DNA from: Sinohyriopsis cumingii | Lineage: Eukaryota > Mollusca > Bivalvia > Unionida > Unionidae | NCBI GenBank assembly: GCA_028554795.2 | Contig: CM068829.1 | Location: forward strand, 129,968,016 to 130,032,015 | Direction: 5' to 3' | DNA: 64,000 bases | Shown: positions 11,225-42,832 of the stretch, piece after piece | Layout: each line of letters starts with the position of its first letter | Numbering within the stretch: position 1 is the stretch's first letter | Notes under the pieces: model-generated | The model's database searches: none | Seen by the model: the letters and a program-made list of their open reading frames with translations, nothing else | Told to the model about the DNA's origin: nothing | Made by a program: the position numbers and the translations under genes

Positions 11225-11530
11225 TTAATTAAAATTTGTACATAAGAATTTATCCAATCTACTTCCTTTGTTTATTTTATAGTAAAAAGTGTATTCCTTC
11301 CTTGGCATATTTAAGTACCTGTATATATCCGTAAATTTGTGTCTTTTTATGAAGTTTTCTATTTCTGGTTTGATCCTGATATCATTGGTTGTTAATTCCC
11401 CTTTCCTATCTATGTTATCCCCTACCCAGTTAAAATCCCCACCTAATATTATGTTTTCCATAGTATACTTTTCTAGATAATTTGTTAATTTGTCTAGGAA
11501 TTCTTTTTTATGGTTCATTTTTGCCGGCAT
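11225..11530 (-). pseudogene. LINE apurinic endonuclease, C-terminal part
   Basis: The block IILGGDFNWV (G-G-D-F-N, a catalytic Asp and Asn of the exonuclease/endonuclease/phosphatase fold) is clear, followed by RLDKFLCTN (S/R-R-L-D, another family block). This would nick target DNA for target-primed reverse transcription. It is broken from its N-terminal half. Confidence 0.8.
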
Positions 11531-11724
11531 ATATAAATTTATAAAATGGATCTTTTCAATAATTATATGTAAAAGTCTACCTTTAAAATATTTCCTTTCA
11601 TCAACCCTTTCCCAATTTACTCCTTTTTTATTTTTTATTAATGTAGCTACCCCCTCCCCTTATATCATTTCCTTCGTAATCATTAGTTAATAGAATCCCG
11701 TTTAATTGATTTTCACATGACACT

Positions 11725-18931: not shown

Positions 18932-19239
18932 GTTCATGTAAACTCCTGTTTTGGATCTGGATCGAAGACAAAGAGCACAAACTATTACCTATGAAATGTT
19001 TTTTTCTTTTAGAACAACGGTGTTTAATGACAGGTTTTCAAACTTGTGGATTCAGAGTCTTGTATGAAATTAAGGTCTCTGACATAGCTTTTTCAGTAAC
19101 ATCAAAAGGAAGGGTGGTCCCATCGTTTTTTGTTTTGTCTTTGTGGGGTTTTTTTTTTGTGTGCCGGCGGTACCCCCTCACGGCTGCTGCAGGATGGACT
19201 TAAGGACTGTTCTATCGCCGATGCATACATAAAGCGCGG

Positions 19240-25549: not shown

Positions 25550-25554
25550 CTTTG
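25550..25554. repeat. Left target-site duplication CTTTG
   Basis: CTTTG directly precedes the left inverted repeat and is repeated directly after the right one (41794-41798). With one more base on each side the match breaks (ACTTTG versus CTTTGA), so the duplication reads as 5 bp. Confidence 0.8.
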
Positions 25555-25776
25555 AGCAGCAGAGGGGGCGAATAGCCTCTAATTGATTCTTTAAATATCC
25601 GTCAAAATAAGATTTCAACAACAATTGTCGCCGTCTCTGCTGCCTATTTGTCAGAAGACAGTAAGGAGCCTCTATTGGTTCACTCATTAAGCCTTCCCAC
25701 AAAATCGTTAAAAAAAAGTGCGGTGTAAAACAACTTCGTTTACCCTTATCGCTGGTATGTTTTTTTCCTCTTTGTC
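25555..25776 (+). repeat. Left terminal inverted repeat, 222 bp
   Basis: It starts AGCAGCAGAGGGGGCG and ends CCTCTTTGTC. Compared with the reverse complement of 41572-41793 I count about a dozen mismatches by eye and no indels. Inside it, CTCTGCTGC at 25635-25643 is complementary to the terminal GCAGCAGAG, so each end can fold into a hairpin. GCCTCTAATTGATTC and GCCTCTATTGGTTC are imperfect direct repeats that may be integrase-binding sites. Confidence 0.95.
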
Positions 25777-26437
25777 GATGTACGAAAAAAAAATATTTGC
25801 GCGTCTGCTGCCATAAAGTTCCGGCTATAAATTAAAAATTTAAATTATCAATGTTGGAGATAAAAAACTTAAAACGTTTATCAAATACACTTATACGATC
25901 TTTTAATTTAAGTTTGATTTTTATCGAGTATCTTTTATATCGGCTCAATCTCGCGAATTTGATTATATCTAACAATTATCATTTTACACTGTGTTGTAAG
26001 CATTTTAAGGATTTCCCACTCTGAGATTTCTATTTCTCGGCTGGTATCGCGTATACGCTTATCTATCAATTCTAATTAACAAATTTCATTTTCGAGTTTG
26101 TGAAAATCTTGCAAGTTCGCCACAACAAATCCTTCTCTCTCTCTCCAGACAAATGTTCGATCTCTTTCTCGCAGTAGACGCGTGTTCCTTCTGCGAGATT
26201 GTCACGCAACTTTTTTACGCGTTCGTACATGTTAGTTTTTCCGGGTCCATCAAACTGAGACAGTATTTACTGTGTAAGTTTTCAAGATGTGTTTTGATTG
26301 ATGCTATAATTTTGTCGTTCATATATGTATATGATTTTGTCTAAATGTTTGTTATGTTCAGACAAAAAATGATTACGCAAAAGAAAAAAACATTCGAGCG
26401 TCTGTTGTCATAAATTAAAAAATTGTTATACTAAATA
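25777..26437. promoter_or_regulatory. Left leader between inverted repeat and first gene
   Basis: No coding gene seen. A motif CGTCTGCTGCCATAAA near 25803 recurs as CGTCTGTTGTCATAAATTA near 26399, just before the first ATG. The TCTCTCTCTCTCC run at 26135 and the AT-rich DNA are compatible with a promoter, but I cannot define one. Confidence 0.3.
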
Positions 26438-27353
26438 ATGGTACATTCGGAATCTTACACAGCTAGACTAGCCAGAGAGCGAGAAGAAGCACTTAAGAAA
26501 TATATCCCTGTAAAGGAGGATTTAAACAAAAAAATGTACAATTACAACAAGAAGCTAAGGAAGGTTTTACAGAATCAACTGAACTATTGTTTAAGCCTGT
26601 TACCACATCATTATCGCGTACTGCTCAACAACAAAATGTTGCGACAAGACGGCTAGCAGCCGCAGCTGAACGATCCGCTGAAGCAGCTGCCAGGGCGGCC
26701 ACTGCTGTCAGGGGAGTTGCAACAAGGCCACCCGAAGAAGTTTTCGTCGTTGCGTCAGAAACGCTACCTGGAGCCGAAGCTCCACCGGAATACAAACCTG
26801 GTAAGGCAACAATCAAGGAGAGTGTGGCAAAAAATATTAAGATGAAAAATTACGATAACGCGGTTGATCTTGTAGGTGAATTAAATGATCATGAAAACTA
26901 CCTGGAGCCGGGTTCGCCATTGTTAAAGTATGACCAATGGGAACGGTTGGTGTTTACTACACATAAAGGTATTAGTCGGGTTATGTCAGAACACGAAGAT
27001 GATTTTAAACAATTTAAGAAAGATGTTGAAGCAAGAAGAGTTGCAAGCCCTGTTGTGACTGCAGATCTGTCAACACCATTAAAAACACCCCCGATAATAA
27101 CACAGCCGACTAGCATAAAAAAAAAACATCCGGCAAAGGTTTGGGAAGTGGTTTTATTCCCTGCCCTAATAATATTTTCAATGACTTTTCGTGGTTAGAA
27201 GTTCTCATAGGAGGAAAACGAGCTGGGAATAACTCACCAGAAATAATTAATGAAGCCGCTGGTATTTGTCGGCGCTTATTTCAAGGTGGTGTCATGGATG
27301 CTAGTATTTACCAAGAACTCATTGATGAACTCGTTGACGATTACAGCGATTAA
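26438..27353 (+). pseudogene. Minor virion protein of the element, two frameshifts
   Basis: Three consecutive frames make up one gene. The N-terminal part (26438-about 26530) is charged and helical with ARLAREREEALKKY. The middle part (to about 27120) has an Ala-rich coiled stretch (LAAAAERSAEAAARAATAV) and then a conserved-looking block from about 26930 (WERLVFTTHKGISRVM). The C-terminal part (to 27353) contains GSGF, then LEVLIGGKRAGNNSPEI and ends in acidic residues. Frames change at the A7 run 26528-26534 and the A10 run 27117-27126. Proteins with a similar C-terminal block occur in other invertebrate virus-like elements, from general knowledge. The role is inferred only from its place at the head of the virion gene block. 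Confidence 0.6.
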
Positions 27354-27373
27354 ACAATAGTAAATAACATAAC

Positions 27374-27832
27374 ATGGTCATATACAACAGACATTATACA
27401 CCTGTGCAGGTCAGAGCAGTAAACTCACGATTACCAGTTTATAGAGCAACTTACGGAGACGGACTTGGCGATGTGGTTCAGGGTTTATTTGCGGGGTTAG
27501 CACCACAAATTGGCCCTCTTGCAAAACAATTATCAATGAAAGCCATTAATGTTGTTGGTGAAAAAGCTCCTGGTGCAATTGTTAGTGCTGCTGGTAAGGC
27601 ACTCTCGGCAATCAAAGAAAGACTAGCGCGACTAATGCGTAAACCTCAAAGAGGTTCACCACCACCGGTGAAATTACCAAGCACCGAAATTATGCCCGCG
27701 GATGTTAGTAAGGTGATAAATCAGGCTGCAAATCAAAAACTAGCAGCGTTAATAAATCAGGAATCTGACACACAAAGAAATATCACAGCAAATTTGATAG
27801 CAGGAAGTGGACTTCGTGTGCGACAAAGATAA
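27374..27832 (+). CDS. Small hydrophobic/basic virion-type protein, 152 aa
   Basis: The frame is intact. The N-terminal third has GDGLGDVVQGLFAGLAPQIGPL, a Gly-rich amphipathic or membrane-active segment, followed by a helical stretch and a basic patch (ERLARLMRKPQRG). The C-terminus has a Gln/Asn-rich part and ends RVRQR. Glycine-rich 'GLG..F.GL...' proteins sit between virion genes in many Polinton-type elements and have been likened to adenovirus core or membrane-lytic minor proteins. That comparison is by position and composition only. It starts 20 bp after the previous gene and is followed by the capsid gene. Confidence 0.5.
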   Translation: MVIYNRHYTPVQVRAVNSRLPVYRATYGDGLGDVVQGLFAGLAPQIGPLAKQLSMKAINVVGEKAPGAIVSAAGKALSAIKERLARLMRKPQRGSPPPVKLPSTEIMPADVSKVINQAANQKLAALINQESDTQRNITANLIAGSGLRVRQR

Positions 27833-27864
27833 TCACTATTTGGAAACATACGCAATATTATAAA

Positions 27865-29281
27865 ATGTTCAAACACATATCCGACCCAGCATTTAATATA
27901 GATGAGCCGGTTCAAAAAGATAACTCAGTGCGTGATTATCAATTTTATTCCTATGACGCACGAGAGCCAAATCAACGAGGGGGGTGTATCGAACTTCAAG
28001 TTCATGATACAAGTATATATTTCTTGCCAGCTGAGACGTTTATTGAAGTAGAAGGTGAACTTGTAAAGGCGGATAATACTGCATACGATCCCAATACACG
28101 AGTTGGTTTTGTCAATAATGGAATTATGGCACTGTTTAGTAGCACCATATATATGATTGATGGAAAAAATATCGAATCGATTCAAAACGATGTCGATGTT
28201 GCCACAACAATAATTGGTCTAGCGAGATATTCTGACGACTTTACAAGATCATCTGGTCCGTCAGTGATGTTTGCCAAAGATATTACCAACAACGCCGATC
28301 ATATTCAATATATTATAGGAACACACACAAAAAAAAAACCTCTAACGCTGCTAATGACGCAGATATGGGGCCGGTAGTTATGAGTGCTAACGCGACTTAC
28401 AACTTGGGATTTGCAACACGCCAATCAATGTTGTCAGGAACACGAAGAAGTTTTTCGTGCGCGATTCCACTCTCTCACATCTTCGGATTTTGCAGAGATG
28501 TTAGAAAGGTCATCTTTGGAGCTAAACACACAGTTGTGCTCGTAAGAAAAGGTGATGATAAAGATGCGATCTGGCGAGGAGCTGGTGTCGATGCTGGTAT
28601 GGTAAATATAACAAAACTTTCATTGTGGATGCCGGTATTAACTCCATCGGTCACAGAAGAACCGCGATTACTCTCTTTTATGAATCAAGGCGGTAAATCA
28701 CTGTTATCATGGCTTACAGTAACCACAGACGCCATCCAAAGTTCCGTCAGAGATATATTTACTTGGCATATAGCATCACAAGAAGGGGTTTCTGCGCCAC
28801 GACATATTTCTATTGCGCTGCAGGATAATCATCGACTGAATAATCAGGAACATTCGCATATGATATTTGACAAACTCGACGTTACCGAGGTTTCGTTGAG
28901 GATAAACGGGCAACAAGAACCGTCTGAGGATATATCGTTCAGTTTTACAAATAATCATGTGGCGCGTGCCTATAATCGCTGGCCTACGTTTCTGTCGCGT
29001 AATATAAATATAGATACTGGAACGCTAATATCACAGTTTGATTTTACAATTTTGTACCCGATTTATTACTTTCGCTGGAGCATCTTGATTTATCCAAACA
29101 ATCTGTCGTTGATATACACTTCCGAGCTCGCGTAGGTGCATTACCTAAAATTGCAGATGGTCCGCCAATTGTTTATGGCCCCTATAGAGCAATCGCGGTC
29201 ATTCTCAGTTACAAAGCAATGTTACTCGAAGGCACTAGTGGTCGAATGAGAGTCATTGACGCACCAGTAGAAAACATGTAA
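27865..29281 (+). pseudogene. Major capsid protein (double jelly-roll type), two frameshifts
   Basis: The protein is read in three frames. The first (27865-about 28330) has VRDYQFYSYDAREPN, then FIEVEGELVKAD, FVNNGIMALFSSTIYMIDGK and TTIIGLARYSDDF. The second (about 28340-29075) has RRSFSCAIPLSHIFGFCRDV, VIFGAKHTVVLVRKGDD, ITKLSLWMPVL and NNQEHSHMIFD. The third (to 29281) has SKQSVVDIHFRARVG and ends in PVENM. This order is the pattern I know from virus-like capsid proteins in invertebrate genomes. Shifts occur at the A10 run 28329-28338 and around 29070-29085. A complete protein would be about 470 residues, somewhat shorter than typical Polinton capsids. Confidence 0.75.
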
Positions 29282-29328
29282 ATGTTTTCAAAAGCATGTA
29301 ACAATTAGATCAGTCTCATACTAAATAA

Positions 29329-30242
29329 ATGTCATACAGTCACGTTAATGTCACTCTGACTCCTGGTCAGGCGAAAAAATTACAATCGAAAAACGCGAGC
29401 GCATGTGGGGCAACGATAACACTAAAAAATGATCAAATTACTGGCGATCCAAACAAATTATTGCTGACTAAAACACAACTTAATCATTTCATTAAAGCAA
29501 AACAAGCAAAAACTGGGGTTCAACTTAGTTTTGCTCCAAAAGCCGTCAAAGACATGATTAAAACCGGTGGTATATTTCCCCTTCTCGCAGCAATACCAGC
29601 ACTGATAGCTGCCGCCGCTCCCGCAGTCCCTAAAGCATCCGCGTTAGGAGCTGTTGGAACCGCTGCTGGAATGGCATTAAAGAAAGCCACAGGGAAAGGA
29701 TGCAAAAAAAAAGGGACGCGGGTTAAGACTTCCAGGAACTCCGCCTTCATGGTACCCAAGACGGTTCTGAAACAAAACACAAGTGTTTTCACCCCGATGT
29801 CAAATATTGATTTACTCGATGCTGCCAAAAATATAACAAATTGCAGAGGCGTCTTTATGAGAGATCAGTTACCACAACAACCGAATAATCCAGAAACCGG
29901 AATTATTAATCTTGATAATAGCGATGGTCCAGGAACTCACTGGGTTGCTTACGCGATTGATCCACGTGGAATTATTTTTTGGATTCGTATGGGTTAGCAC
30001 CGCCAGTTGAATTTCTAAAATATGTACACAGAGTGCAAAGCAATCCAGTGCAAATTATTTTCAATTCCATTCCAGTTTGGTACTCAACGCTACCAACACA
30101 AACACTAACCGATCCGCCAATATATGGCCGTGAAGTATTAAATGTTCTTACCGTGATATCAAAATCAACCAAACCACCCCACAAAGTCGTGCACGAGTAT
30201 ACCGCGGGTCGATTTAAACAATCGTTAAAGAATAATGGTTGA
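29329..30242 (+). pseudogene. Capsid-associated N-terminal region plus adenain-like cysteine protease, frameshifted
   Basis: Residues 1-130 have LTKTQLNHFIKAKQAKTGV, a hydrophobic Ala-rich stretch (LLAAIPALIAAAAPAV) and a basic GKGCKKKGTR patch, as in small virion proteins. From about residue 150, MSNIDLLDAAKNI, RGVFMRDQLP and then GTHWVAYAID form the usual N-terminal part of an adenain-type (C5) protease, with the catalytic His in G-T-H-W. At the T6 run 29975-29980 the frame shifts and continues as DSYGLAPPVEFLKYV, then ends at 30242. Where a Cys-Gly nucleophile is expected there is YG (Tyr codon 30123-30125). The stop overlaps the start of the next gene by 8 bp. Confidence 0.65.
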
Positions 30243-31225
30243 TAGTTACGGAAGCTCTCTCGTCGAAACAATAACAAAACGCGGTGATGTAGATTTATCA
30301 AAATATGCGACCAAGGATGAAATCGACAATCTTTTATCGTTATCCGGGATAGACCCAGATGAGGTTGTTATTTTTCAGGACCGACACGGAAAACTAAAAG
30401 CCAGCTATATGAAATGAAATAATTCGTAGGGTTATTGGAGCTACTCCGGGTAACATCCCTGTGTTCACTGACAGCGGAAAAATCAAAGATTCGCTGATAT
30501 CAATTGCGGTGTTAAGAGATGATACGCAGAAAGCTGCAGGGGAACGCGTAAAAAAGACCGGTGATACAATGACAGGTGAATTCAGCATGAACGGAAACAA
30601 AATAGTGGTTTTAAGAGATCCAACATCCCCGGAAGATGCCGCGACAAAAAAGTATGTTGACACCGTTGACGGTAAATTATCCACGTTGCGGGCCGAGTAT
30701 GATGTTCACGTAAACGCGTTTTCAAGACTTCGCAGAAACTTTCAAAAAGCCGATGAGACCATAGATAATTTCTTTGGTACTTCGCTCACCGTCTATATGA
30801 AACTTTCTGATATCAAGACCAACATTGACACGATCAAACAAACACAGCAGGATATCGTAAGTGGGATTCCTGATATCGTTAACAAAACCAGTTTGATTAA
30901 AATACCATCTGGAGTTACTCCCGGGCATATTACCAACATAGTATACACGGTATCATCTGGATTCGCAACATGGTCTAAACAAAACAACACCATCAAATAT
31001 ACCGCAACAGTCACTGGTGTGTACAGGTTGTCTGTGTTCAGTGCTGCGCGATTTGAGATATTTACAACGTATCCCTGGCGACATTCCACCGACAAGTATT
31101 CCGGGGTTGTAACTATCATATTAAACAAGGGAACCGAAGAAACATTTATACTGGAAGCAGCTGATAAGAAATTAACCACAACATCCTACTGGTGGTGTTT
31201 GGAATTTGTAGCTGAAACGCCTTAA
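30235..31225 (+). pseudogene. Fibre-like attachment protein with phage-tail GDTMTG motif, one frameshift
   Basis: The start ATG (30235) overlaps the end of the protease gene. The N-terminal part (60 aa) has DLSKYATKDEIDNLL, a helical, trimer-like stretch. The second part has GDTMTGEFSMNGNKI and then DPTSPEDAATKKYVD. This 'GDTMTG...NKI...DP..P.DA..K.YVD' block is well known from bacteriophage tail fibres and collar proteins. A coiled stretch and a beta-rich C-terminus (TVSSGFATWSKQNNTIKYTATVTG...) follow, typical of a knob. The frame changes around 30405-30425. The role in host attachment is inferred. Confidence 0.65.
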
Positions 31226-31249
31226 TTGGTTACTGCGTAAAATAATAAA

Positions 31250-31725
31250 ATGGTGTCAGAGTCAACTGCGCAGCAATTTAGGTACGATTAAGTACGCGAA
31301 TGGCAGTCAGAGTTAAAAAATACCATTGACAAATGCACAATAAAAGTAAAAAAATATAAGCGGCGTGTAATTATCCTAGACACAATAGTATATTCAGTAT
31401 CCGCGATAGTTGCATCTACTGGAGTAGTATTATCCGCGTTAACTCCAGTGACAACTGCAATCGCAATCACAGTTACAGTTTCAACATCGACGACAATTGC
31501 AGGCGTTGCTAACATCATCGCGAAAAAATATCTTCATGCGCGAGCACAAAATTGCGCGAATATAATAGGTTAAACAATGCGGCCACGAGCGCCTACTCGA
31601 AATTATCGTCGCTGATATCATCAAGTCTCGACGATACAGCAATATCAGATTCCGATTTCGCGCAAATGGTAAGGATATACGAAGACTACACCAGTCATTT
31701 GAAAAGACAAAAGATAAATAATGAC
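31250..31725 (+). pseudogene. Membrane protein of the element, stop at codon 14 and a frameshift
   Basis: From ATG 31250 the frame has an in-frame TAA at 31289-31291. It then runs with a basic helix (KKYKRRVIILD), a long Ser/Thr/Ala/Val hydrophobic region (TVYSV... through TTAIAITVTVSTSTTIAG), and a basic end. The frame shifts near 31545 (CAAAATTG) to a helical region with AATSAYSKLSSLIS and SDSDFAQMVRIYEDY. Similar two-part proteins occur in cnidarian and other invertebrate virus-like elements, from general memory. No function is known to me. It probably sits in a membrane or is a minor virion component. The end is near the next ATG at 31721. Confidence 0.5.
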
Positions 31726-33001
31726 GGAATTACTTCATCAGATCAAAATCGTTTGCTGGTTTGCCAGCGAATAATTCGTTTGTGTTTGCAAATAAAGATA
31801 AACAAGATGGCACCCCCGACTGGAACGTCATTGGTTACCAACCGGGTCTTATCAAATCGAACAAATCAATGGGGAATTACAACGTCAAATAAAAAATATC
31901 ACAGGAATAGAATCCAAAATAACAATAACTGTTCATGTATCAACGCTGTCTTCTGCAATTGAGATAAACTCTCCAGACTACGCCGTGGATATATATAATA
32001 GTTCGATCAGAACAGTGTTAGGATGGCCTAAAACTCCACCCGAAGCACCACCGCATCCATCTGAACCGAAAAAGTCTGACTATGTCACGGACAATAAATC
32101 ATACCACGAAATTGACCCGTCGTATAAACAGCGTCTACACGATATAAAAAATGCAATGGGGAATAGTAGTATTGGTTTCTAAGACAAGGACAATATTCGC
32201 TGGTTTTTTAATCTCAGCTGGACATCCATCGGTGGCAGAAACATCGGACATCTCAGCATTGACCTAAGTGATATTATTAACATTTTTAAAATCATTAATC
32301 AAGAACATAAAACACAACTAGAGCGACTACGGCAGAGCTTCCAAGAACATACTTTTGATACATCGCTACGCAGCGAAATCATCAGACACGTAGAAATATT
32401 AAATCAGCTTGTATCAGACATGGAATATCTTAACCAGCGAGCAATTCAGGCAATAATTAATCCAAGAAATGACGCCGACAACAAACGGAAATTTTTAGCT
32501 GCATACTCGCTAACAGACGATGAATTGCCGAATTTCAAACTTCCCGGGTACAACGCAGCCGAGTTAAGAAAATTCGTTACTGACCTCATCAATGAGTTCT
32601 TTGATGACGATGACATACTCGCAGCGTGGAAAAAAACACTACCGGATCCAACTATCCTCCGATACAACAATAGCCCAACCGGAGAAGGTCGACATGTGTC
32701 CCCGGAAATCGTAAATATAACCGAAATAGTCGCGGTCAATCTTGTGTGTGATGTAATCGATGGCAGTTACAGCACGGACACGACAGTATCAAATCAAGCC
32801 CAGCAAGGATTTGTTCTTTCTTCATTCACCCCGAAAGAACCACCTGGATTTCTGATTGTGCAAGAGCCGATCAATCCAGTCTATCTACGATATCATAATC
32901 CGTGGCTGACCAGAATAAATTTCAAACTAACAGACCAGTCTGGTCACCTTCTTGATTTGCGAAATGAAACACTCCATATTAATTTACTTGTGAAATCCTA
33001 A
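31721..33001 (+). pseudogene. Penton-like minor capsid protein, several breaks
   Basis: A start at 31721 lies in a damaged N-terminal region (31721-31880) where frame changes are needed at least twice. From about 31880 one frame runs to 32182 (TAA), then continues in the same frame to 33001. The 5' part has a Pro-rich linker (WPKTPPEAPPHP). The middle is helical (IINIFKII... LERLRQSF). The C-terminal ~100 residues have ITEIVAVNLVCDVIDGSY, FLIVQEPINPVYL and INFKLTDQSGHLLDLRNETL. This is a jelly-roll-like block ending in alternating hydrophobics, as at the C-terminus of penton-like proteins in Polinton-type elements. The in-frame stop at 32180-32182 is either a lesion or a gene boundary. Confidence 0.6.
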
Positions 33002-33005
33002 AAAT

Positions 33006-33136
33006 CGAAGATTTTCAGGATTTTCAGTCTTAAAGACTTTCAATCGTAGAAGTCTTCGACTTCCAAATCTTACGATTTTCAAGGATTTTCAGTCTTAACG
33101 ACTTTCAGTCTTAGAGATTTTCCACTTCCAAATCAG
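33006..33136. repeat. Two ~65-bp direct repeats after the penton gene
   Basis: GATTTTCAGGATTTTCAGTC at about 33010 and GATTTTCAAGGATTTTCAGTC at about 33073 start two similar units that both continue with a GACTTTCA...CACTTCCAAATC-type sequence. They start within 10 bp of the penton stop. Confidence 0.7.
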
Positions 33137-33195
33137 AAAGTAAAAAACTACATCCACACACAAGGAATGACAATTAATCAAGTGAGTATTATATA

Positions 33196-33352
33196 ATGTA
33201 CCAACATGTGAGGGTTTTCATACACGACAAGCAAGTACTTGAAAACTACATCAAAAAGATAGTTTATAGTCGGCCCAGTTGACTTGGTTATTGATGTGTA
33301 CGGCAACGAAGACTTCCTATTGACACAATCACAGCTGGATAAACTACAGTGA
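33196..33352 (+). pseudogene. Small hypothetical ORF of the element, frameshifted
   Basis: From ATG 33196 the frame reads a short helical peptide (VFIHDKQVLENYIKK) and meets a stop near 33281. A neighbouring frame continues as DLVIDVYGNEDFLLTQSQLD to a TGA at 33350. The two halves look like one ~50-residue protein with a shift near 33260-33275. I do not recognise it. Confidence 0.3.
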
Positions 33353-33459
33353 GAACATATTTGTATGGTCAAGTGTAATAAAGATCAAATTCTAAATTAC
33401 GCGCATTCTTGCATTAAATCCGATCGACTAAAGGAAATATTATCAGATTGACAAAGTCA

Positions 33460-33560
33460 CCTCGACGAAATCAAGGAAGTAAAAAAAAATATTTTTTTTT
33501 TACCGTCACTGACATTCTACTTCCTTGATGAAATCATTTCCAAGTCCTTGATTTCATTTC
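33460..33560. terminator. Palindromic A/T region between converging genes
   Basis: GAAATCAAGGAAGTA (from 33466) pairs with TACTTCCTTGATGAAAT (from 33518), and AAAAAAAAATATTTTTTTTT lies in between. CTTCCTTGACTTC occurs again at about 33571-33583. The block sits exactly where the rightward virion genes meet the leftward block, so transcription ending is plausible. Confidence 0.35.
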
Positions 33561-33596
33561 TAGGTATTTACTTCCTTGACTTCACTGGTAACTTCG

Positions 33597-33950
33597 TTAC
33601 TCTCTGACATACATTTTTTTAAATTGTTTTACGCGAGTATTTATTACTTTCTTTGTTCCATATTCTTGGAATAATTCCAACCTAATTTTTTCATTTGCAC
33701 GAGACAACGAAACAAATTCATTTATTTGTGCTTCTCCTACTGTAGCCAGCGATTTATATAATTTCGTCTGGATCCTCTTTATAAATCTGTACTTAGCAGG
33801 CAAAATATAACGCCCTGCGCATTTAGCCTCATGTAGTGTTTCAAAATCAGACATGATTTTTTCAGGATTTAGTTCATCGGATATATTAAATCTGCGCTGT
33901 TCTAATTTTTTAATAGCAACAATCACATCATTGATATTTTCGTAATTCAT
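33597..33950 (-). CDS. Hypothetical protein of the element, 117 aa
   Basis: The frame is intact, starting at 33950. It has helical content throughout (NDVIVAIKKLEQRRFNIS, YRFIKRIQTKLYKS) and ends with a basic RVKQFKKMYV. There is no transmembrane segment, no Cys cluster and no recognised motif. It is the last gene of the leftward block and follows a highly basic short gene. It could be a DNA- or virion-associated protein, but nothing in the sequence shows that. Confidence 0.45.
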   Translation of the reverse strand: MNYENINDVIVAIKKLEQRRFNISDELNPEKIMSDFETLHEAKCAGRYILPAKYRFIKRIQTKLYKSLATVGEAQINEFVSLSRANEKIRLELFQEYGTKKVINTRVKQFKKMYVRE

Positions 33951-34024
33951 ATATGTATATATTTAAAAGAAAAAAATAAACAGTGGCATGATGAGCGGTT
34001 ATCAATGGGCACCTGCACACTGAC

Positions 34025-34228
34025 CTATGTGTCTCCACGGGGTCCTTTCAGACTTTTATTTCGAGATTTTTTATCTTTGAGATTTTTGTCTCGAGATTTT
34101 GTATCTTTGAGACTTTTGTCGCGAGATTTTATCTCTGTCTTACAGAGACCTTTCTTGTGGCTTCTCGGCAATCCCCGTGATCGTTTGTTTTTGGTCGCAT
34201 TCTTTCTGAATGTTTTATTTTTACCCAT
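34025..34228 (-). CDS. Short Lys/Arg-rich repeat protein, 67 aa
   Basis: The sequence is dominated by Lys, Arg, Ser and Asp and has three units of a 9-residue repeat like KSRDKSLKD (last one KSRNKSLKG). The N-terminus MGKNKTFRKNATKNKRSR is also strongly basic. Basic peptides of this size could compact packaged DNA, as adenovirus core proteins do. That is a guess from charge alone. It lies 75 bp upstream, in the transcription sense, of the 117-aa gene. The matching DNA repeat could also have arisen by slippage. Confidence 0.4.
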   Translation of the reverse strand: MGKNKTFRKNATKNKRSRGLPRSHKKGLCKTEIKSRDKSLKDTKSRDKNLKDKKSRNKSLKGPRGDT

Positions 34229-34244
34229 ATGACTTAGAGCTTAC

Positions 34245-34525
34245 ATCCGCCAATGTTTATTTTGGGGGCTCCACACAACGAAATGTTAAGGCTGTCTGTT
34301 GTACATACCCCCCAAGATCAAAATCCCAGGTGTGAAAAACACATTCCAACGATTCGACGTGGAGGAGATATGTACACGAGGGCCCTGCTGGAGCCTCCCA
34401 ATTATTATAAAACCCTAAATGGGCACCGTCGACAGTATGTCCGTGACGAGACTCGAACCGCTGGCATTTGATAAAGTCGGGGACGAGAGTCAAACGCTTT
34501 ACAACTGCACCACGGTCTTATCTAA
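34245..34525 (-). repeat. tRNA-derived SINE, family B, inserted inside the element
   Basis: On the minus strand from about 34525: GTGGTGCAGTTGTAAAGCG is A-box-like, and GCGGTTCGAGTCTCGTC near 34445-34465 is a clear B box. The rest (to 34245) lacks the TATACTGGC body block and CAA tail of family A. It separates the basic gene from the HNH gene and is likely a later host-derived insertion. Confidence 0.65.
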
Positions 34526-34597
34526 TAATACAGGATTTAAAAATTATCATATAGGTAACTATTGACAGACAGTTAACAAGTTCTGAACATTACTGCT

Positions 34598-34680
34598 AAA
34601 TTTAAGTTCTAAACTGGATTTTAAACACTAAATTTAAGTTCTAAACTGGATTTTAAACACTAAATTTAATTTCTAAACTC
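34598..34680. repeat. 32-bp tandem repeat, 2.6 copies
   Basis: AAATTTAAGTTCTAAACTGG begins units at 34598, 34630 and (partial, with changes) 34662. Confidence 0.9.
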
Positions 34681-34914
34681 TATTTGTGAAAATAACACTT
34701 ACCTGTACTGACAATTATCAAACGCGGAAATAGACTGTGGCGCAGTGTGTATACAATTGGCTGTAAAAAAAACAACTGTATACAGTTCTGCTCGCTGGAT
34801 AATATTACCTGAAAGGTAATGATATGTGTGCTGGACGAAGTCACCTTGACAAGGGGAGGGAACTAATTGCATGAGATATGCTTAACGGAGTTATCTCCCT
34901 TAAATTTATCGGCT
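34681..34914. other. Non-coding DNA inside the element
   Basis: No gene seen. GGAGTTATCTCCCTT near 34879-34893 resembles a motif frequent in mollusc repeats. Confidence 0.35.
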
Positions 34915-35429
34915 CTAACAATAATGAAAAACAATCCTTTGTTTATTATATTTTTTTGAGATGGCAGATTTGTATATAGTTTCTGCGACTCTTCGTACTG
35001 AAGCCCTACAAATATCAAAATATTTGCCAGCTGAGTTCATCGATTGAAATATTATTTCTTCATTCGTATCTAAATTTATGGATACAAGTCTCTTGGCGCT
35101 CTTATCACTACAGCCAGTATTACCAGACTTACAATTTTGACTTTGTGTTACAATTCTCAGATTGGATAAAGAATTGTCGAGTTTGTTGTTGTTGATGTGG
35201 TCGATCACAAGACCGTCTTGGATCACTCCGTTAAATACCTCGAACACGAAATGATGACAGAGATACCTCTTTTTCCAACAGTAAATCTAAGATAACCAGA
35301 ATTATTAACAACACCAACTGGTTTTTTCAACCTGCAATTTCTGACTATTCTATTATGATTCGCTTCGTAATTCTTAATGATGGGGTGTGGGGCAAATTCT
35401 TGATTTCTTTTATATAATAATGTATTTGT
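34915..35429 (-). pseudogene. HNH endonuclease with NUMOD-type DNA-binding region, no start codon
   Basis: The minus-strand frame is open from 35429 down to the TAG at 34915. The first part has YLRFTVGKKRYLCHHFVFEVFNG, then GLVIDHINNNKLDNSLSNLR (HNH_3-like: D-H-I-x3-K-x-D-N-x(4-5)-N-L-R). It then has KRLVSINLDTNEEIIFQSM and SAGKYF, a NUMOD1/IENR1-like helix-turn-helix repeat. This combination is typical of free-standing homing endonucleases in phages and giant viruses. The frame starts right after an in-frame TAG at 35430-35432 and has no ATG near its N-terminus, so the 5' end is missing or damaged. The usual ATG at 35247 would cut off part of the domain. Confidence 0.75.
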
Positions 35430-35492
35430 CTAATTTATAATTTGTCTGAAAACTTAGTTAAATAATCGCGCTCACATTTTAGCGCATCATTA

Positions 35493-35715
35493 TTATTTTT
35501 TTTTGTTATAATATCTTTTAAGTTCACGGTATCTTTTTCCACCGAAACTTGCACATAACTGTGTTTTACCCCTGACCCCAACACCACATCGCAGGCAGGG
35601 TATTGGTCCTAAACTCCCCCTTCTAATGCTTTGGGAATGTTCTCCGCAGAATTCTTTCCTGCAGGATTTGTTATTTAAGGTAACAGATCGAAGTTTAAGC
35701 CACTTGCATTGATTC

Positions 35716-35717
<2 letters not shown>
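35493..35717 (-). CDS. Small Cys-rich protein, probable zinc binder, 74 aa
   Basis: Intact frame. It contains C-x(14)-C-x(4)-CGEH, then PCLRCGVGV and LCASFGGKRY, so several C-x2-C or C-x-H pairs. It ends in a basic Arg/Lys tail. Short CGEH...PC..CG proteins occur beside HNH-type genes in other elements, as I recall, but I know no function. It is the first gene of the leftward block, about 60 bp upstream of the HNH frame in transcription sense. Confidence 0.45.
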
Positions 35718-35793
<76 letters not shown>

Positions 35794-35804
35794 TATAGAT
35801 ATAT
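35718..35804. repeat. (TA)n microsatellite inside the element
   Basis: A tract of about 87 bp between two divergent gene blocks. Confidence 0.95.
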
Positions 35805-35842
35805 AAAATATTTCTTATTTAAATGTTTGTCTTAAATATAAT

Positions 35843-37026
35843 ATGGAGGAGTTGAAAGATTATCTGCAATCAAGCCCTGGAAAGCTTCTAGATTCGATCT
35901 TGACAGACTAACCCCTGACTCGCGGAGACGAGCCCTGATTGATCTGTTTGATATTATCAGGAATGCCAAAAAAGAATTTCGCAATGATAGAGCATCTCAC
36001 GTATGGTCTACATTCAAAGTTATACGCGACACCAAAGGTGTTGACGAAATCAATGTCGACGAAGTCATTGATGCTGTAATGAATGATGCACGAGCGAAAA
36101 CGATTATCGATTACCTCTTTGATAATCAGAAATATTTTTTCAGAATAAAATATATTGTGCAAGCAGATTCCGATACCTGGATTATCCGTGACAAACGTGA
36201 TCCTGTCCTTGCTAACGGAAAAACCGCTTTGTTAAGTAAAGATTCCAAACCAGGAATGTTGACTGGGATTGATAAACTATATTACGCTCGATCGTATCCT
36301 GCGACTGCGGTCATTTATGGAATCTATCCGATAAAAAAATCCAATATTAATAAACTTGCCCCAATGAGATTGTCAAGGCTGAATTGTGTAGCCGAGCGGG
36401 TAATGGAATATTTTACAAATGCGAAGCGTGGAAACTGTTTAACCAATCTGCGACGTGAAAAAATAAACAAATGGGCTGAATCGGTTAAGGATACAGGAGC
36501 GTCAATAAACGATGTCGCTGAGTTATCAAGTAAATTAAAGTTTCCAATAACCGTAAAAACGTTAACGGGAGAGGTATTATATAAATCAGCGAATAAGTCA
36601 AAGAGAGCACCAATTGAAATTATTGACCATAACGCTCACGCTTGGACTAACGCAGTAACAATGTTTCCACGAAATCGTGTTGTGAAATATTACTCGTCCG
36701 AGGGTGGAATGTTTGATGCTATCAGCCGGATAAGCAAAAACGACCATGTGTCGGTGTGGTTGTTAAAAAGTTCCGAAGATGGTGAGGATGATCAATTTGT
36801 AAGACCTAACGGCGAATTATATCGTAAAGAATCTCTACATGAAGAAATGAAAAAACTCGCACAGAAATATTCAGAAAACACTGAGCAGTTATTAACTAAT
36901 TGTTTTACAGTTCCGTCAGTTGCTGCCCACGCTGCCAGAGAGAGAAATTTATGGAGACCAACACGCGCTGAGTTCCTTGAAGATGTTCAGTTAAGTTGTA
37001 TCGAATACGGACACGGCGGTTTGTGA
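35843..37026 (+). pseudogene. Polymerase N-terminal part
   Basis: About 390 codons from the start region to TGA 37024. The clearest features are a helical N-terminus (RRRALIDLFDIIRNAKK) and KSKRAPIEIIDHNAHAW. The block VPSVAAHAARE precedes the stop. A 3'-5' exonuclease motif is not obvious to me. The first ~10 codons are in another frame, so the initiation region is damaged. Confidence 0.5.
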
Positions 37027-37992
37027 AACACCAAATATGACCACAAGGATATCATTTCCGTAGACATGATTGCGTGTTATCCAGGAAGTTTTCTCGGGAT
37101 GGGCGAGTGTGCTGAATATTTTAAAAGATTTGGTCATCCTTGTAATGAGATGGCAAGAGTTGCTATAAATGGTCCATTACCCGATTTTTCCCTGACAGGA
37201 TTTGCTCGTGTGACATCGTTTGAATTCGCTGAAGAGCTTCATCCGTGCTGTTATGTTTGGTTTGGCAGACACTTCTCGGAGAAACGTTGGGCACCAATAG
37301 TGTTATTACGATATATGCTTGACAAAAGAATACTGATATCATTGATGGTCAGTGAAGCGATCATATCGTACCGAAAACAGACTTCGGTTTGGTTACCAAC
37401 ACCTGAGCGAATCAGTCTCGATGAAGTCATTGAAGAATATGCACGAGAGTGTCCAAATACTCCTGCTGATGTCATCGTCGATGACGCTCCTAATATTCTT
37501 AAAATTAAACTCAGCAACAGTGAAAAAACAGCAAACGATCTCGGTAGTAGAATAATCGGTAAATTTACTCAAGGTTGTGCATATGATCATAAACGACATC
37601 ACTCACGATTGATTATGGATGATGCTGAATTAGATTTTATAATTGCTGATGCCGCTGCGAGAAATATATTTTGTAATCGGGACGACGCTTACTTGTCTGA
37701 CGGAACACGGTTGGGCACAATTGTTAGTTACATTAATGGAGAATCACCTCAATACACACATTCAAGATCTTCGATGCTTGCTTATGTTTCTATAGATTTG
37801 CTATCAATGATAAATAGATTTCCTGACACTGCAGTTAGAGTTGCAACTTATTCATTTTATATCGATAAAAGATATTCAGAATTACTGGCTCCTTTTACAA
37901 ACAATGATGAATCATGGAGTTTGTGGAGAATAAAAAAGGAAATGCTACATTGTTATTGTGAATCCGTTGATGTTGAAATTAAGGATAATTAG
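37027..37992 (+). pseudogene. Polymerase palm/thumb part, catalytic motif C altered
   Basis: It runs in the same frame as the upstream part. Motif A is DMIACYPGSF (Asp, then Tyr-Pro). A middle block, SRIIGKFTQG, sits where motif B is expected. Motif C should contain a T-D-S/D-T-D core, but the sequence is VRVATYSFYI with a TAT (Tyr) codon at 37849-37851. This one-base type of change would abolish metal binding. The ~130 residues between motif A and B are divergent. Confidence 0.65.
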
Positions 37993-38013
37993 TGCAAATC
38001 AGAATTATCGGAA

Positions 38014-39324
38014 GTGTCGTTGGCGCCGTCTGTGAATGATCCAATCACCAGACACAAATCAGTTTATTTGAACGGACCGGGTGGGTCTGGTAAGACAACT
38101 CGAGCGATTGAATTATTTCGAAATTCAGATATGATTGTGCTAACACCAACACACAGACTCGCCAGGGAGATGAAACAACGAGGAGTCAATTCTTGTACTT
38201 ATCACAGCTTTTTCAAATACAGCGGTGGTGCGTGGACTCCTGACCGAATGGGAGAGAAATATATTCCGCGGATTATTATTTGGGATGAAATAGGCATTGT
38301 GTCGTTAGATATATTAAAAATATTTCTTGATTGGCTATTAACAAAAAATACTGCAGTCGTTATGTGCGGCGATCACGGTCAGCCACCACCTTTTGTTGGT
38401 CCATCTCCGCATTTGTGGTTAAAAGATTTTGTTAATTATTATGAAGAAGTGTCTGCTGATTATAGAGCGCTAGATGCAACGTTGAAGGGATTTAAAACAT
38501 TAATCAGATTACAACCGAATAAAATTCATTGTGAAATTATGCGTAAAATAATTTCAGAGACTTCAATGAGCGACTTTCTGCAAACGTGGAAACCAAACGA
38601 TTTGATAGTGGCAAGTAGAAAGATAGTCAGAGACACACTTCAACAGCAGTTATTTGAATTACAGCGGGAGAAATTTCCAATGTTGCCAGTGCCGTTGTGT
38701 TATAGACCAGCTGATACACGACTACAAAATATTGACGTTGATATACCAGGACAGACCGAAAAACAGAATTTAGTATTAAATGATATTGTCACAGTTGATG
38801 TCAATGTTGTTGAAGATGCACTGCGCGCTGATAAATCACCGTGGACGCTAGGATACGCAATGACGATTCATTCATCTCAAGGACTAACTATTACTGATAC
38901 AGTTGTTTGGATCGTTGATGATCGAATCGAGTGGTCAAACTTAGTTTACTTAGCTGTGTCCAGAGTCAGAAGATTTTCTCAATTGCGGATAATTGTCTTG
39001 GACGAGTCAATGGCTGATGAAATTAATAATGAAAACAACAGTGATATAATAAGAAAAAAATTAGCCGGTTACAAACAGAGTGACAAAAAAAATAATCGCA
39101 ATTTTGATCTCGACGTTGAATTTATCATAACACTGAAACAACAACAGAATAATCACTGTGCGAGCTGTAATTGTATAATGTTGTGGCAGTATTCGAGTAA
39201 TAATCTAAGACAATTCACCGTAGATAGAAAAGATAGTAGTCGCGGTAATGCACGACAAAATGTGATGCTGACCTGTCTTGAGTGTAATCGGCGTAGGGGT
39301 GCTGACACCCTTGGTGCTAGTTAA
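38014..39324 (+). pseudogene. SF1 (Pif1/RecD-like) helicase and C-terminal HNH nuclease
   Basis: The helicase motifs are complete and in order: Walker A GPGGSGKTT, motif Ia TPTHRLAREM, Walker B IIIWDEIG, motif III CGDHGQPPPF, motif IV region RLQPN, motif V GYAMTIHSSQGLT and motif VI VYLAVSRVRR. After a ~35-residue linker, HCASCN, FTVDRKDSSRGN and CLECNRRRG make an HNH or endonuclease VII-like zinc fold with two C-x2-C pairs. The frame is open and continuous with the polymerase apart from TAG 37990. The last 8 bp overlap the end of the convergent integrase gene. Helicases in this position could unwind the replication fork. Confidence 0.85.
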
Positions 39325-40269
39325 GTGATTTGGGCGGTAATTGTGTGTCCTCGGGAATTACTTGTAATTCTTCACGTGTGAATCCACGTTGAGGAGCAGT
39401 TGAATCCAGTCTATAAATTGCTGGTCTACCAGTAGATCTAGCTATGTTAGATATCTTGTGTGTGGTAATACTCCAGATAGGATCAGTAGCTCTTTTTTAC
39501 CACCTTCAGGTTCACCTGGTTCATATAAATATCTCACAATGACATCACCCAGTATTGGTTGCGTTGAAAAATCACGTCGTTGTACGGGTGTATTCTTTTT
39601 GGTAATTGCATTAATAGGTTTCATGTTGGTTGTTCGAGTAATTTCATTATTTAATGCAGTTATCACACTTGGTAATCTTGCAACCCATTTGTGAGATCTC
39701 TTGTCCTGAATGAATTCCTTCGCGTACTGATATCCAAATAACCGCTCAGCAAGTGTTCGATTAAATCGCTCAACAATTGCCTGATCACGGTGAATTTCAG
39801 TATGTCCTCGTCTGATGGTGACATTATGTTGCTTCATCAGCGATGATACTGCGCCTTAAAATTCTTTGTCAGGATCAACTTGTAATAGATTTGGCCATCG
39901 CAGACCACCTCGTTGATAAATTCGTTCAAAAGCAGAAGCAACCTCAGATGCTGTTTTAGTCGTTAACGGTTCTGCATCTTTGTATTTACTTGTAACATCA
40001 ACTACAGTTAACGCGTATTTATATGTTCGACGGCGAACGGTATCATGTGGTAGAAGTAATATATCAGCTTGATGAACTTCATTTGGCACACTAACATTAA
40101 AATGTGCAAAATTAATTTTCTTAGGACGCGGTAGATAAATTTGCCATATTGCCTGTTTGGATAACCAATCTGCTGCAGTATTACGTGTGACTTTTGCTGC
40201 ACTGGCAAGTTTACTAATTGCTGCGTTACCCTTCTAGTATCCTCTTGGGGAATAATAAATCGACTCCAT
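39317..40269 (-). pseudogene. DDE (retrovirus-like) integrase, two stops and one frameshift
   Basis: From ATG 40269 the frame has TAG at 40234-40236 (codon 12), an N-terminal helix-turn-helix-like part (AAISKLASAAKVTRNTAADW), then HQADILLLPHD with the first catalytic Asp. YALTVVDVTSKYKDAEPL follows, then LLQVDPDKEF with the second Asp, and a TAA at 39856-39858. In the same frame it continues as HRDQAIVERFNRTLAERLF with the catalytic Glu. Near the A6 run (plus-strand T run 39493-39498) the frame shifts to a C-terminal part (IARSTGRPAIYRL) that ends at 39317-39319. All three catalytic residues remain. Integrases of this type insert Polintons. Confidence 0.85.
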
Positions 40270-40274
40270 TATAA

Positions 40275-40831
40275 TTAATTACCAGCACCTAATACAAGCT
40301 TAGATTTCATCGCGGACTTTATTAACCAACTGGCTAATCTTTCTTTGAGAGATTTATCAGTGATGGAATTTAACGCGTGAATTAATTTCACATCAGCGAG
40401 ATGCCTATCTTGTAGATTTTTACTATCTTGTAGATTTTTACTTTTATAAGCTACATCATGCACATGACACGCTTTATCGATAGCATTTATTGGTTCTTCT
40501 CCGGGTTTTGGTTGATCTTGATCATCAAGTCTGATATCAAGACTGGTTCCAGGACCACAGTAATCATATCCTGGGAAATGTTTTCCTCCTGGGTATTTAG
40601 CCCACGGAGCCCCTGGTAATTTTCCTAACTTGGCGGCAATATCACCTCCTCGTGTTTCTTTTTACTTGACGCTGACTTGCCACCTGACGGACTCAGGGAG
40701 ATAAATTTAAATTTCTTTGTACCACATCGCTCACACTTGCCTGTAACCGCTGATCTGTTATTTTTTGTTGTAATAGTTGTTAAATCACCTGTTGGGGTAC
40801 GTGCTCTACATTTCACACAATATAAATCCAT
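40275..40831 (-). pseudogene. Zinc-ribbon (DUF5679-like) plus phospholipase A2 gene, one frameshift
   Basis: The N-terminal part from ATG 40831 has YCVKCRART and CERCGTKKFKFIS, two C-x2-C pairs of a DUF5679-like ribbon. This frame ends at 40625. In another frame, open from about 40655 down to 40275, are APWAKYPGGKHFPG, YCGPGTSLDIR (a Ca-binding-loop type motif) and CHVHDVAY (the His-Asp catalytic pair of PLA2), followed by a helical end. The pattern resembles the PLA2 domain of parvovirus capsid N-termini. The frames change near the AAAAAGAAAC run, about 40660-40670. An 18-bp duplication repeats SKNLQD just after the active-site helix. An endosome-escape role is inferred. Confidence 0.75.
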
Positions 40832-40851
40832 ATTTATTTTATATTATTCTA
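40832..40851. promoter_or_regulatory. 20-bp divergent intergenic gap
   Basis: The zinc-ribbon/PLA2 start (40831, minus) and the ATPase start (40852, plus) are only 20 bp apart, and the AT-rich gap reads like TTTATTTTATATTATTCTA. Any shared promoter must overlap the coding 5' ends. Confidence 0.4.
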
Positions 40852-41522
40852 ATGGAAATCACTGACTTTTCTGCAACAAGGAAACGAGAACCAGTTAAGC
40901 ATCACGCAGCGCTACCAAATTCTGTTCGTATGATTATAAAAGGACCATCTGGGAGTGGTAAGACACAGTTGTTACTTAATTTAATAATGAAGTGGATGAA
41001 GTGGGATAAATTGTATTTGGTAGCACCAAGCGTAGACGATCAACGATGCTACGAAGTGTTAAAAGACTTAATGAAAGTGCAAAATCATTAAATGAAAACG
41101 ATGATGATGTTGTTGAATTTATAACTGACATTAATGAAGCGCCAAGTGTAGAAGATATTGATGGATTTATTAATAATTTAGTTGTTTACGATGATGTCAT
41201 GTTGGATAAACAATCAAATCCAGCTAGGATATTTTCCAGAGGCAGACACAAAAACACAGATGTGATTTATGTAACCCAGCGATATACACAAATTCCTAAA
41301 GTGATCAGGGATAACTGTAATATTCTTGCAGTGTTTAACGGTGTTGATACACACACGTTACGAAATATACATCAGACTTGGTGCAGTGGCGATATGGATA
41401 TAAATAAGTTTAGAAATTTATTTAGTCATGCCCAATCAACCCCGCACGGATTTATAACAATAAATTTACATGATCCTCGAACACGATATCGAGTCGGGTT
41501 AGATACGAGTTTTGGAGGATAG
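40852..41522 (+). pseudogene. Packaging ATPase (FtsK/HerA, A32-like), one frameshift
   Basis: From ATG 40852 the first frame has IIKGPSGSGKTQLLLNLIMKW (Walker A) and LYLVAPSVDDQ. The frame changes around 41050-41090. The second frame has NNLVVYDDVMLDK (Walker B, D-D), FSRGRHKNTDVIYVTQRYTQIP (sensor-type block with a conserved Gln) and ends at 41522. These are the marks of genome-packaging ATPases of Polintons, virophages and giant viruses. A complete protein would be about 220 residues. It is the last gene before the right inverted repeat. Confidence 0.85.
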
Positions 41523-41571
41523 CAGCAGGGAGGGCGCGCCTCCAAATTGTCACCGACATTTTTCCTTCGAT

Positions 41572-41793
41572 GACAAAGAGGAAAAAAACATACCAGCGAT
41601 ATGGGTAAACGAAGTTGTTTTACACCGCCCTTCTTTTTTACGATTTTGTAGGAAGGCTTAATGAGTGAACCGATAGAGGCTCCTTACCGTCTTCTGACAA
41701 AAAGGCAGCAGAGACGGCGACAGTTGTTGTTAAAATCTTATTTTGACGGATATTTAGTGAATCAATTAGAGGCTATTCGCCCCCTCTGCTGCT
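41572..41793 (-). repeat. Right terminal inverted repeat, 222 bp
   Basis: The reverse complement begins AGCAGCAGAGGGGGCG and aligns with the left repeat over its entire length without indels (about a dozen substitutions by eye). Confidence 0.95.
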
Positions 41794-41798
41794 CTTTG
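41794..41798. repeat. Right target-site duplication CTTTG
   Basis: It matches the 5 bp before the left end. Confidence 0.8.
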
Positions 41799-42832
41799 AC
41801 TAAGGTTGTATTTTATTCAAAGATGTTAAATTCACAAACCGTTTGTCATTGAACTATAGCTCATCATGTGGTGAATAGAAAGTACAAAATATTCTCTTTT
41901 AGTCTGTGCAAAACATCTTGCTATCAGAAGTCGAAGAATGAAATGTTGTCACTAATATCGGCATAGTTATTAATAGGTATACCCCTGCAATCACTTAAGG
42001 TCAAGAATAAGGTGTTTAATGCGGTTCAAAAGCACATAGTAACAACAAGGAGATGTTGTTTAGTTCATTTGGTGTCTTCAAATGAATCATGTTTATCTCT
42101 GCTACGTATTTAGCTACTACATATGAAGTTCAATATCCTTACCCCCTCCCCCATCAACATTTTTATATTTGAGTCTTTGTGCTATAAATATTTATTAATT
42201 GCACCCCGATGATATTACAAAATTGCAGGTACAATGTTGTTTCTATATCTAAGGAAACTGCGTCAATGTTTTTAATCCGCTACCATCTTTGCTCACGCCA
42301 GAGAAATAATTCAAGTCAAGATCCTTGTTAATGAAGAGATAGCTTGAAATAAACTTTGAGCTCAGTCCTCTACAGCCATTGACCTGATTTGTATGTATTT
42401 TCCAGGAGGAATCCTGCAAATAAATAAATTTAAACCAGCACTTTCCGCTGATAAAATTAGTTTTATGAAAGACAACATACAAGATGGACTTACATCTTTG
42501 TAAAAGAATGGAACGGTCTGACAGATGAAGATATTACCGGGTTAAATCACAGGAGTCTGATGTTTTGTTTATAAAGTAAGATGAACTCTCTGACAACACG
42601 AAAGCACATTATTAGTACATTAAAAATAACACTTGCGCGTGTTAATTTAGTGTACTGATAAGGCGATTTCGTGTTGTCAAAGATTTAATCGTACTTATTG
42701 ATAATACGTCAGACTCCTGTGGTTCAATCAAAGCCTAAGATATGTATTTTAGGTGCAGAGGAACAAAACATAAAAAAAATGTAAATAACAAGATACTGAT
42801 AATAATGCGAGTAATATAACATGTCCAGCTAG
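41799..42832. other. Host flank right of the element
   Basis: AT-rich non-coding DNA with no gene or clear repeat that I can identify. Confidence 0.4.

What the first reader, a model, noticed from the sequence alone, without database searches (positions are those of the whole stretch)
25550..41798. Complete 16.2-kb Polinton/adintovirus-like element with both ends resolved
Seen: 222-bp inverted repeats without indels, AG-start termini, CTTTG on both flanks, and seven core viral functions between them. Known: Polintons/Mavericks have such ends and genes but normally 6-bp duplications. The 5-bp duplication, the extra gene set and the order of blocks suggest a distinct lineage.
Basis: partly seen in the sequence, partly recalled or inferred. 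Interest (0 to 1): 0.9.

Follow-up and report, generated by a model that had tools for sequence, protein, structure and literature searches.

The report
Decayed polinton with Tlr1-type replicase
A 16-kb virus-like mobile element, now broken by mutations, sits in a eukaryotic chromosome; from outside it looks like a polinton, but its DNA-copying enzyme is a polymerase-helicase-nuclease fusion of a kind described from protist elements.

Summary
A 16,239-bp element (25555-41793) has 222-nt terminal inverted repeats (210 of 222 identical, no indels), AGCAGC...GCTGCT ends and CTTTG on both sides. It carries a double-jelly-roll capsid gene, packaging ATPase, rve-type integrase, PLA2 and a weakly supported adenain-type protease.

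The copy is dead: two stops and a lost catalytic Asp in the replicase, one stop in the integrase, broken frames in capsid, ATPase and protease.

The 5-bp duplication carries no lineage weight: CTTTGA on the right allows a 6-bp duplication with one lost A, and no second copy was available. New variant of a known kind.

The parts
25550..25554 (.). left copy of CTTTG target duplication
   Evidence: p about 0.0014 for a 5-base match
25555..25776 (+). left terminal inverted repeat (222 nt), starts AGCAGC
   Evidence: 210 of 222 identical to the right arm, no indels
25556..25571 (+). terminal box GCAGCAGAGGGGGCGA; inverted copy at 25628-25643(-); the first 106 nt can fold as a hairpin
   Evidence: 5 matches in the window against 0.23 expected (the pattern was made from these boxes); DNA fold z -4.16, 0 of 200 shuffles as stable
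26497..27198 (+). ORF of unknown function upstream of the capsid block
   Evidence: no Pfam, PHROGs or NCBIfam match
27368..27832 (+). ORF of unknown function; possible virion core protein (inference only)
   Evidence: no family match
27769..29281 (+). major capsid protein gene (double jelly-roll), split over three frames: 27769-28377, 28236-29135, 29042-29281
   Evidence: PF21738 E 5.5e-19 for the middle piece; best-scoring homologues 67-69% identical; outer pieces matched by eye to homologue ends; frames
29329..30242 (+). probable adenain-type (C5) protease gene with an extra N-terminal part, in two frames: 29329-29997 and 29961-30242
   Evidence: PF00770 E 0.024, below cut-off, at the C-terminal end of the first piece; second piece without match; frames
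30413..31225 (+). fibre-like protein with phage tail-fibre motif
   Evidence: phrog_1640 E 6.9e-7 and other tail-fibre families; AlphaC_N2 E 0.0016, below cut-off
31513..33001 (+). ORFs 31513-31962, 31802-32182, 32183-33001; possible minor capsid (penton) gene, my reading only
   Evidence: no profile match: 32183-33001; the other two only
34915..35286 (-). remnant of a free-standing homing endonuclease (HNH_3 plus weak NUMOD1)
   Evidence: PF13392 E 5.7e-14; PF07453 E 0.0067, below cut-off
35842..39324 (+). replicase frame: weak TP-like and OTU-like regions (first piece), pPolB palm (second), SF1 helicase and HNH motif (third); in-frame stops TGA 37024 and TAG 37990, terminal stop TAA 39322; motif-C Asp replaced by Tyr
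39442..40233 (-). rve/IS481-type integrase with one in-frame stop (TAA, first base at 39858)
   Evidence: PF00665 E 6.1e-5 and NF033577 E 3.7e-7, both below cut-off; second piece 39445-39855 without Pfam match; stop
40275..40661 (-). phospholipase A2-like protein
   Evidence: PF08398 E 2.3e-12
40777..41522 (+). packaging ATPase (A32 type), two frames: 40777-41091 and 41010-41522
   Evidence: PF04665 E 1.9e-4 and 2.6e-5, the second above its cut-off
41572..41793 (-). right terminal inverted repeat, ends GCTGCT; boxes at 41705-41720(+) and 41777-41792(-); a further box with 2 mismatches at 41522-41537(+) just inside
41794..41798 (.). right copy of CTTTG, followed by A (CTTTGA)

Best explanation
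This is an endogenous, decayed member of the polinton-like supergroup whose replicase has the Tlr1-like (pPolB-S1H) plan. Inferred life cycle: the rve-type integrase inserted a linear DNA with AG...CT ends and 222-nt inverted repeats, duplicating a 5- or 6-bp target. Linear DNA was replicated from its ends by protein priming, with primer domain, polymerase and helicase in one polypeptide and an OTU-like region that may cut the primer part free. The HNH motif is probably a homing nuclease. Capsid protein, protease and packaging ATPase made virions, and PLA2 helped entry. The inverted boxes in each TIR may bind integrase or the priming complex. Shown: ends, gene identities by profile or fold, order of palm, helicase and HNH motif, and the damage. 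Weakly supported: OTU and TP-like regions, protease. Inferred: protein priming, virion formation, what OTU, HNH and boxes do.
Against: No sequence profile sees a polymerase: Pfam finds none in the pieces or in three long homologues, PHROGs none in the palm piece, and a profile of A5 finds only helicases and helicase-bearing proteins in the PDB; the palm rests on fold and motifs. The OTU and TP-like fold evidence is weak (pLDDT 70.3, pTM 0.46; no Foldseek match at E 0.001 or below; two designed proteins score like the TP-like rows). Kinship by sequence with Tlr1 or transpoviron helicases was not tested, because I did not have those sequences. No relative in the viral contigs in 8 scans. The linkage of this replicase with this capsid and integrase rests on this one element, plus both genes being present, apparently apart, in Sinanodonta woodiana.
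Confidence: 0.85

Rival explanations
1. An ordinary Polinton/Maverick or adintovirus (Eupolintoviridae) with a usual pPolB, only decayed and diverged.
For: AG ends, long TIRs, rve integrase, PLA2, DJR capsid, packaging ATPase and a probable protease all occur in polintons (passages of PMC8097293, and PMC4642659).
Against: The only polymerase palm found lies in one frame with a Pif1-type helicase and an HNH motif, and long homologues carry the same order. The OTU His to palm motif A distance is about 140-147 residues in the homologues where both patterns were found, short for an exonuclease domain (domain size recalled).
Confidence: 0.08
2. A composite: a true polinton that later received the replicase gene of another element by nested insertion.
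For: Known modularity of these elements; the stretch 33.0-35.8 kb, with no long coding-strand ORF and several simple repeats, sits just before the replicase.
Against: Besides the TIR, the inverted repeats of 30 nt or more that one search shows (25 of 30 pairs) are AT-repeat palindromes; none brackets the replicase. No second polymerase was found. Capsid and helicase have relatives at comparable distance: best 72% and 80%. The capsid tree is too weak to test whether the two genes share one history.
Confidence: 0.05
3. On the target duplication alone: it was 6 bp (CTTTGA), as in Mavericks, and one A was lost at the left junction; the 5-bp reading is then an artefact.
For: The right flank reads CTTTGA and the left end reads CTTTG followed by the A of AGCAGC. 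Intact vertebrate Mavericks have 6-bp duplications (PMC8097293). The copy carries many other mutations.
Against: It needs one extra mutation exactly at the junction, while an A after a true 5-bp duplication would arise by chance in roughly one case in three (my estimate for AT-rich DNA).
Confidence: 0.5

Closest known systems
Tlr1-like elements and PLVs with pPolB-S1H fusion (Tlr1 of Tetrahymena, some polinton-like viruses, transpovirons; class Aquintoviricetes for the viruses)
   Same: Palm of protein-primed type without the first Asp of motif C, C-terminal SF1 helicase, OTU-like region before the palm, HNH or GIY-YIG end (PMC11071308); Tlr also has an rve integrase, DJR capsid and packaging ATPase (PMC4028283).
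   Different: An adenain-type protease, reported absent in Tlr (PMC4028283), is probable here; PLA2 present; the named homologues are animals and Glomeromycota; direct sequence kinship untested.
Polintons/Mavericks and adintoviruses (Eupolintoviridae)
   Same: AG-start long TIRs, rve integrase, DJR capsid, packaging ATPase, probable adenain-type protease, PLA2 as in some polintons.
   Different: Replicase is a polymerase-helicase-HNH fusion; duplication of 5 or 6 bp not settled.
OmPLV of Oxyrrhis marina (SF1 helicase-pPolB fusion)
   Same: Polymerase and SF1 helicase in one protein (PMC12721341).
   Different: There the helicase is N-terminal, the exonuclease is kept and no rve integrase was detected; here the helicase follows the palm.

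Membership tests
Polinton/Maverick in the strict sense (incl. adintoviruses) | long terminal inverted repeats with AG...CT ends | tested here: met
Polinton/Maverick in the strict sense (incl. adintoviruses) | 6-bp target site duplication | tested here: inconclusive
   5 bp seen, 6 bp with one lost A possible
Polinton/Maverick in the strict sense (incl. adintoviruses) | rve-type integrase | tested here: met
   PF00665 E 6.1e-5 and IS481 model E 3.7e-7, both below curated cut-offs, in a piece ended by a stop
Polinton/Maverick in the strict sense (incl. adintoviruses) | pPolB as its own protein, not fused to a helicase | tested here: not met
   palm and SF1 helicase lie in one frame and in long homologues
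Polinton/Maverick in the strict sense (incl. adintoviruses) | exonuclease domain between OTU and palm | tested here: inconclusive
   not listed, which does not exclude it; spacing of about 140 residues speaks against it
Polinton/Maverick in the strict sense (incl. adintoviruses) | DJR major capsid and packaging ATPase | tested here: met
Polinton/Maverick in the strict sense (incl. adintoviruses) | adenain-type protease and penton | tested here: inconclusive
   PF00770 E 0.024 below cut-off; penton without profile match
Tlr1-like pPolB-S1H elements | palm of protein-primed PolB type | tested here: met
   by fold; not seen by sequence profiles
Tlr1-like pPolB-S1H elements | motif C without the first Asp | tested here: met
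   23 of 24 homologues, 1 gap; the window copy has also lost the second Asp
Tlr1-like pPolB-S1H elements | SF1 (Pif1-like) helicase C-terminal to the palm | tested here: met
Tlr1-like pPolB-S1H elements | OTU domain with Cys and His before the palm | tested here: inconclusive
Tlr1-like pPolB-S1H elements | terminal-protein-like domain before the OTU | tested here: inconclusive
Tlr1-like pPolB-S1H elements | homing endonuclease (GIY-YIG or HNH) at the C-terminus | tested here: met
   pattern in 33 of 37 long homologues; visible in the window frame; Pfam HNH only E 0.25, below cut-off, in one of three homologues scanned
Tlr1-like pPolB-S1H elements | common descent with Tlr1/transpoviron helicases in a tree | not testable with these tools
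   reference sequences not at hand
Tlr1-like pPolB-S1H elements | capsid protein within the PLV (Aquintoviricetes) clade | not tested
   no reference PLV capsids at hand; the tree holds only homologues of this capsid

The most novel reading that the evidence does not exclude
Animals and Glomeromycota carry their own undescribed lineage of integrating polinton-like viruses, with a TP-OTU-pPolB-S1H-HNH replicase, rve integrase, adenain-type protease, PLA2, hairpin-capable TIRs and possibly a true 5-bp target duplication, bridging Tlr1-type elements and classical polintons.
Probability: 0.35. Interest if true: 0.7.

Novelty: new variant of a known kind. Interest (0 to 1): 0.55.

Why it matters
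In the papers I saw, the C-terminal-helicase fusion marks protist polinton-like viruses, Tlr1 and transpovirons, as against polintons with a pPolB of their own. A delimited element with polinton-type ends, integrase and PLA2 but the Tlr1-type replicase, with long replicase homologues in molluscs, a coral, a shark and mycorrhizal fungi, blurs that line. It gives a concrete test of whether replicases are swapped between capsid lineages, and long natural proteins in which the predicted activity of a palm lacking the first motif-C Asp can be assayed.

Tried and rejected
Free relatives: 8 scans of viral contigs (helicase piece, capsid piece, alignments A3 and A2, a TIR 21-mer, and integrase, ATPase and PLA2 pieces) gave none. 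Genome contigs gave one 3.2-kb contig filed as an archaeal MAG, 50% identical to the query in its best segment, too short for context; I take it as eukaryotic DNA. Empty site: the 1.5-kb flanks, joined, match nothing else across the junction in the window. Capsid profile against the PDB: no match. Integrase piece against the PDB: one match, E 0.0074, named a PCNA chain; rejected. PLA2 against the PDB: nothing below E 0.4, though PLA2 and capsid VP1 chains head the list. Rfam: no match. Capsid tree of 28 of 34 homologues plus the window: weak, window in no starred set. Host: not identified. Of 20 flanking ORFs scanned, five matched reverse-transcriptase, zf-RVT or endonuclease families and one, weakly, a phlebovirus glycoprotein; no host gene was recognised. 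Papers: ten searches of an open-licence library. PMC11071296 (passages) holds no 'SF1', 'superfamily 1' or 'HNH'. PMC12220804 and PMC7805220 hold 'polinton' and an SF1-helicase term but I saw only their listings, so they are untested.
Full report
Ends. The inverted arms 25555-25776 and 41572-41793 agree at 210 of 222 positions without indels, with 7 transitions and 5 transversions, K2P 0.056. The element is 16,239 bp at 38.6% GC against 36.3% and 32.9% in the window's left and right parts. Both flanks carry CTTTG. The right one continues with A and the left arm begins with A, so 5-bp and 6-bp readings (CTTTG or CTTTGA) cannot be separated from one copy. Intact vertebrate Mavericks have 6-bp duplications, and reported end motifs are (AG)3 and (AGT)2 (PMC8097293, passages); AGCAGC resembles these.

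Subterminal boxes. The terminal 16-mer recurs inverted 72 bases inwards in both arms, and with 2 mismatches once more just inside the right arm: 5 matches in the window against 0.23 expected, none of 100 shuffles reaching 5. The pattern was made from these boxes and the arms copy each other, so what counts is the likeness of inner and outer box and the fifth match. The first 106 nt fold as single-stranded DNA with z -4.16. Binding of integrase or of the priming complex is inference.

Genes other than the replicase. Capsid: PF21738 E 5.5e-19; 34 homologues, the best-scoring 67-69% identical, named ones Sinanodonta woodiana (56%) and Hydra vulgaris (37%). ATPase and PLA2. Integrase. The protease is weak, and the penton is my reading only. 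A fibre-like gene carries a phage tail-fibre motif. An HNH_3 homing-endonuclease remnant lies on the other strand.

Homologues. One search found 146 proteins and 149 (only the 7994 candidates sharing most words were scored), with 120 listed each. Named sources are Sinanodonta, Elysia, Desmophyllum, Scyliorhinus, eight genera of Glomeromycota (Diversispora, Gigaspora, Cetraspora, Racocetra, Rhizophagus, Ambispora, Acaulospora, Paraglomus) and MAGs labelled Candidatus Thiodiazotropha, which I take to hold clam host DNA. Of 37 proteins of 1050 aa or more among 211, 14 match all seven motif patterns; the patterns were drawn by eye, so a miss does not show a broken protein. In a helicase tree of 124 proteins (of 193 with a match) plus the window, the window lies in an 11-row set (SH-aLRT 95) with Sinanodonta and other rows, nearest P0166 at 80% identity (quick method; several named rows bear the label 'env'). 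The set is separate from the Glomeromycota rows and from a large set with Elysia. In Sinanodonta the capsid and replicase genes bear distant locus tags, so they are apparently not in one copy.

Comparison with print. PMC11071308 (sections 10 and 18 and passages) describes Tlr1-like helicases as a variable N-domain, a domain in the TP position, vOTU, pPolB palm lacking the first Asp of motif C, S1H, and a GIY-YIG or HNH end, in PLVs and transpovirons. PMC12721341 (passages) reports the reversed helicase-pPolB fusion in a dinoflagellate and says that Tlr and transpoviron fusions have the polymerase first, the helicase last and no exonuclease. [quoted passage not shown] PMC3671162 (passages), PMC12451622 (passages), PMC4642659 (passages) and PMC4028283 (passages) gave background on Tlr1 and on taxonomy. 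Krupovic et al. 2016 on the SF1 fusion is not held, so an animal case there cannot be excluded. In ten searches I saw no report of the fusion in animals or Glomeromycota.

Damage. Replicase: two stops and the remaining motif-C Asp changed to Tyr. Integrase: one stop. Capsid in three frames, protease and ATPase in two each. I infer that this copy cannot move or make virions by itself.

Verdict. A real element, polinton-like from outside, with a Tlr1-type replicase inside. Membership in the strict polinton family fails on the replicase; Tlr1-type membership is met on architecture and untested by descent. The host is an unnamed eukaryote, perhaps a bivalve, which is not shown.

Noticed in passing
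30413-31225: Fibre-like gene with a motif of phage tail-fibre proteins (phrog_1640, E 6.9e-7) inside a eukaryotic element.
   Followed up: partly
34915-35286 (-): Free-standing HNH_3 plus weak NUMOD1 homing-endonuclease remnant, besides the HNH motif at the end of the replicase.
   Followed up: partly
19233-20129: Two ORFs in one frame; the first has a weak match to phlebovirus glycoprotein G2 (PF19019, E 0.0033, below cut-off), perhaps an env-like gene of a retroelement.
   Followed up: no
8666-11659 (-): Decayed non-LTR retrotransposon: endonuclease, reverse transcriptase and zf-RVT pieces.
   Followed up: partly
42542-42727 and 7337-7513: Palindromes of about 180 nt (78% and 76% self-complementary), perhaps MITE-like repeats.
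   Followed up: no
L001: A contig filed under an archaeal MAG (Diapherotrites) encodes the same replicase family, probably misbinned eukaryotic DNA.
   Followed up: no
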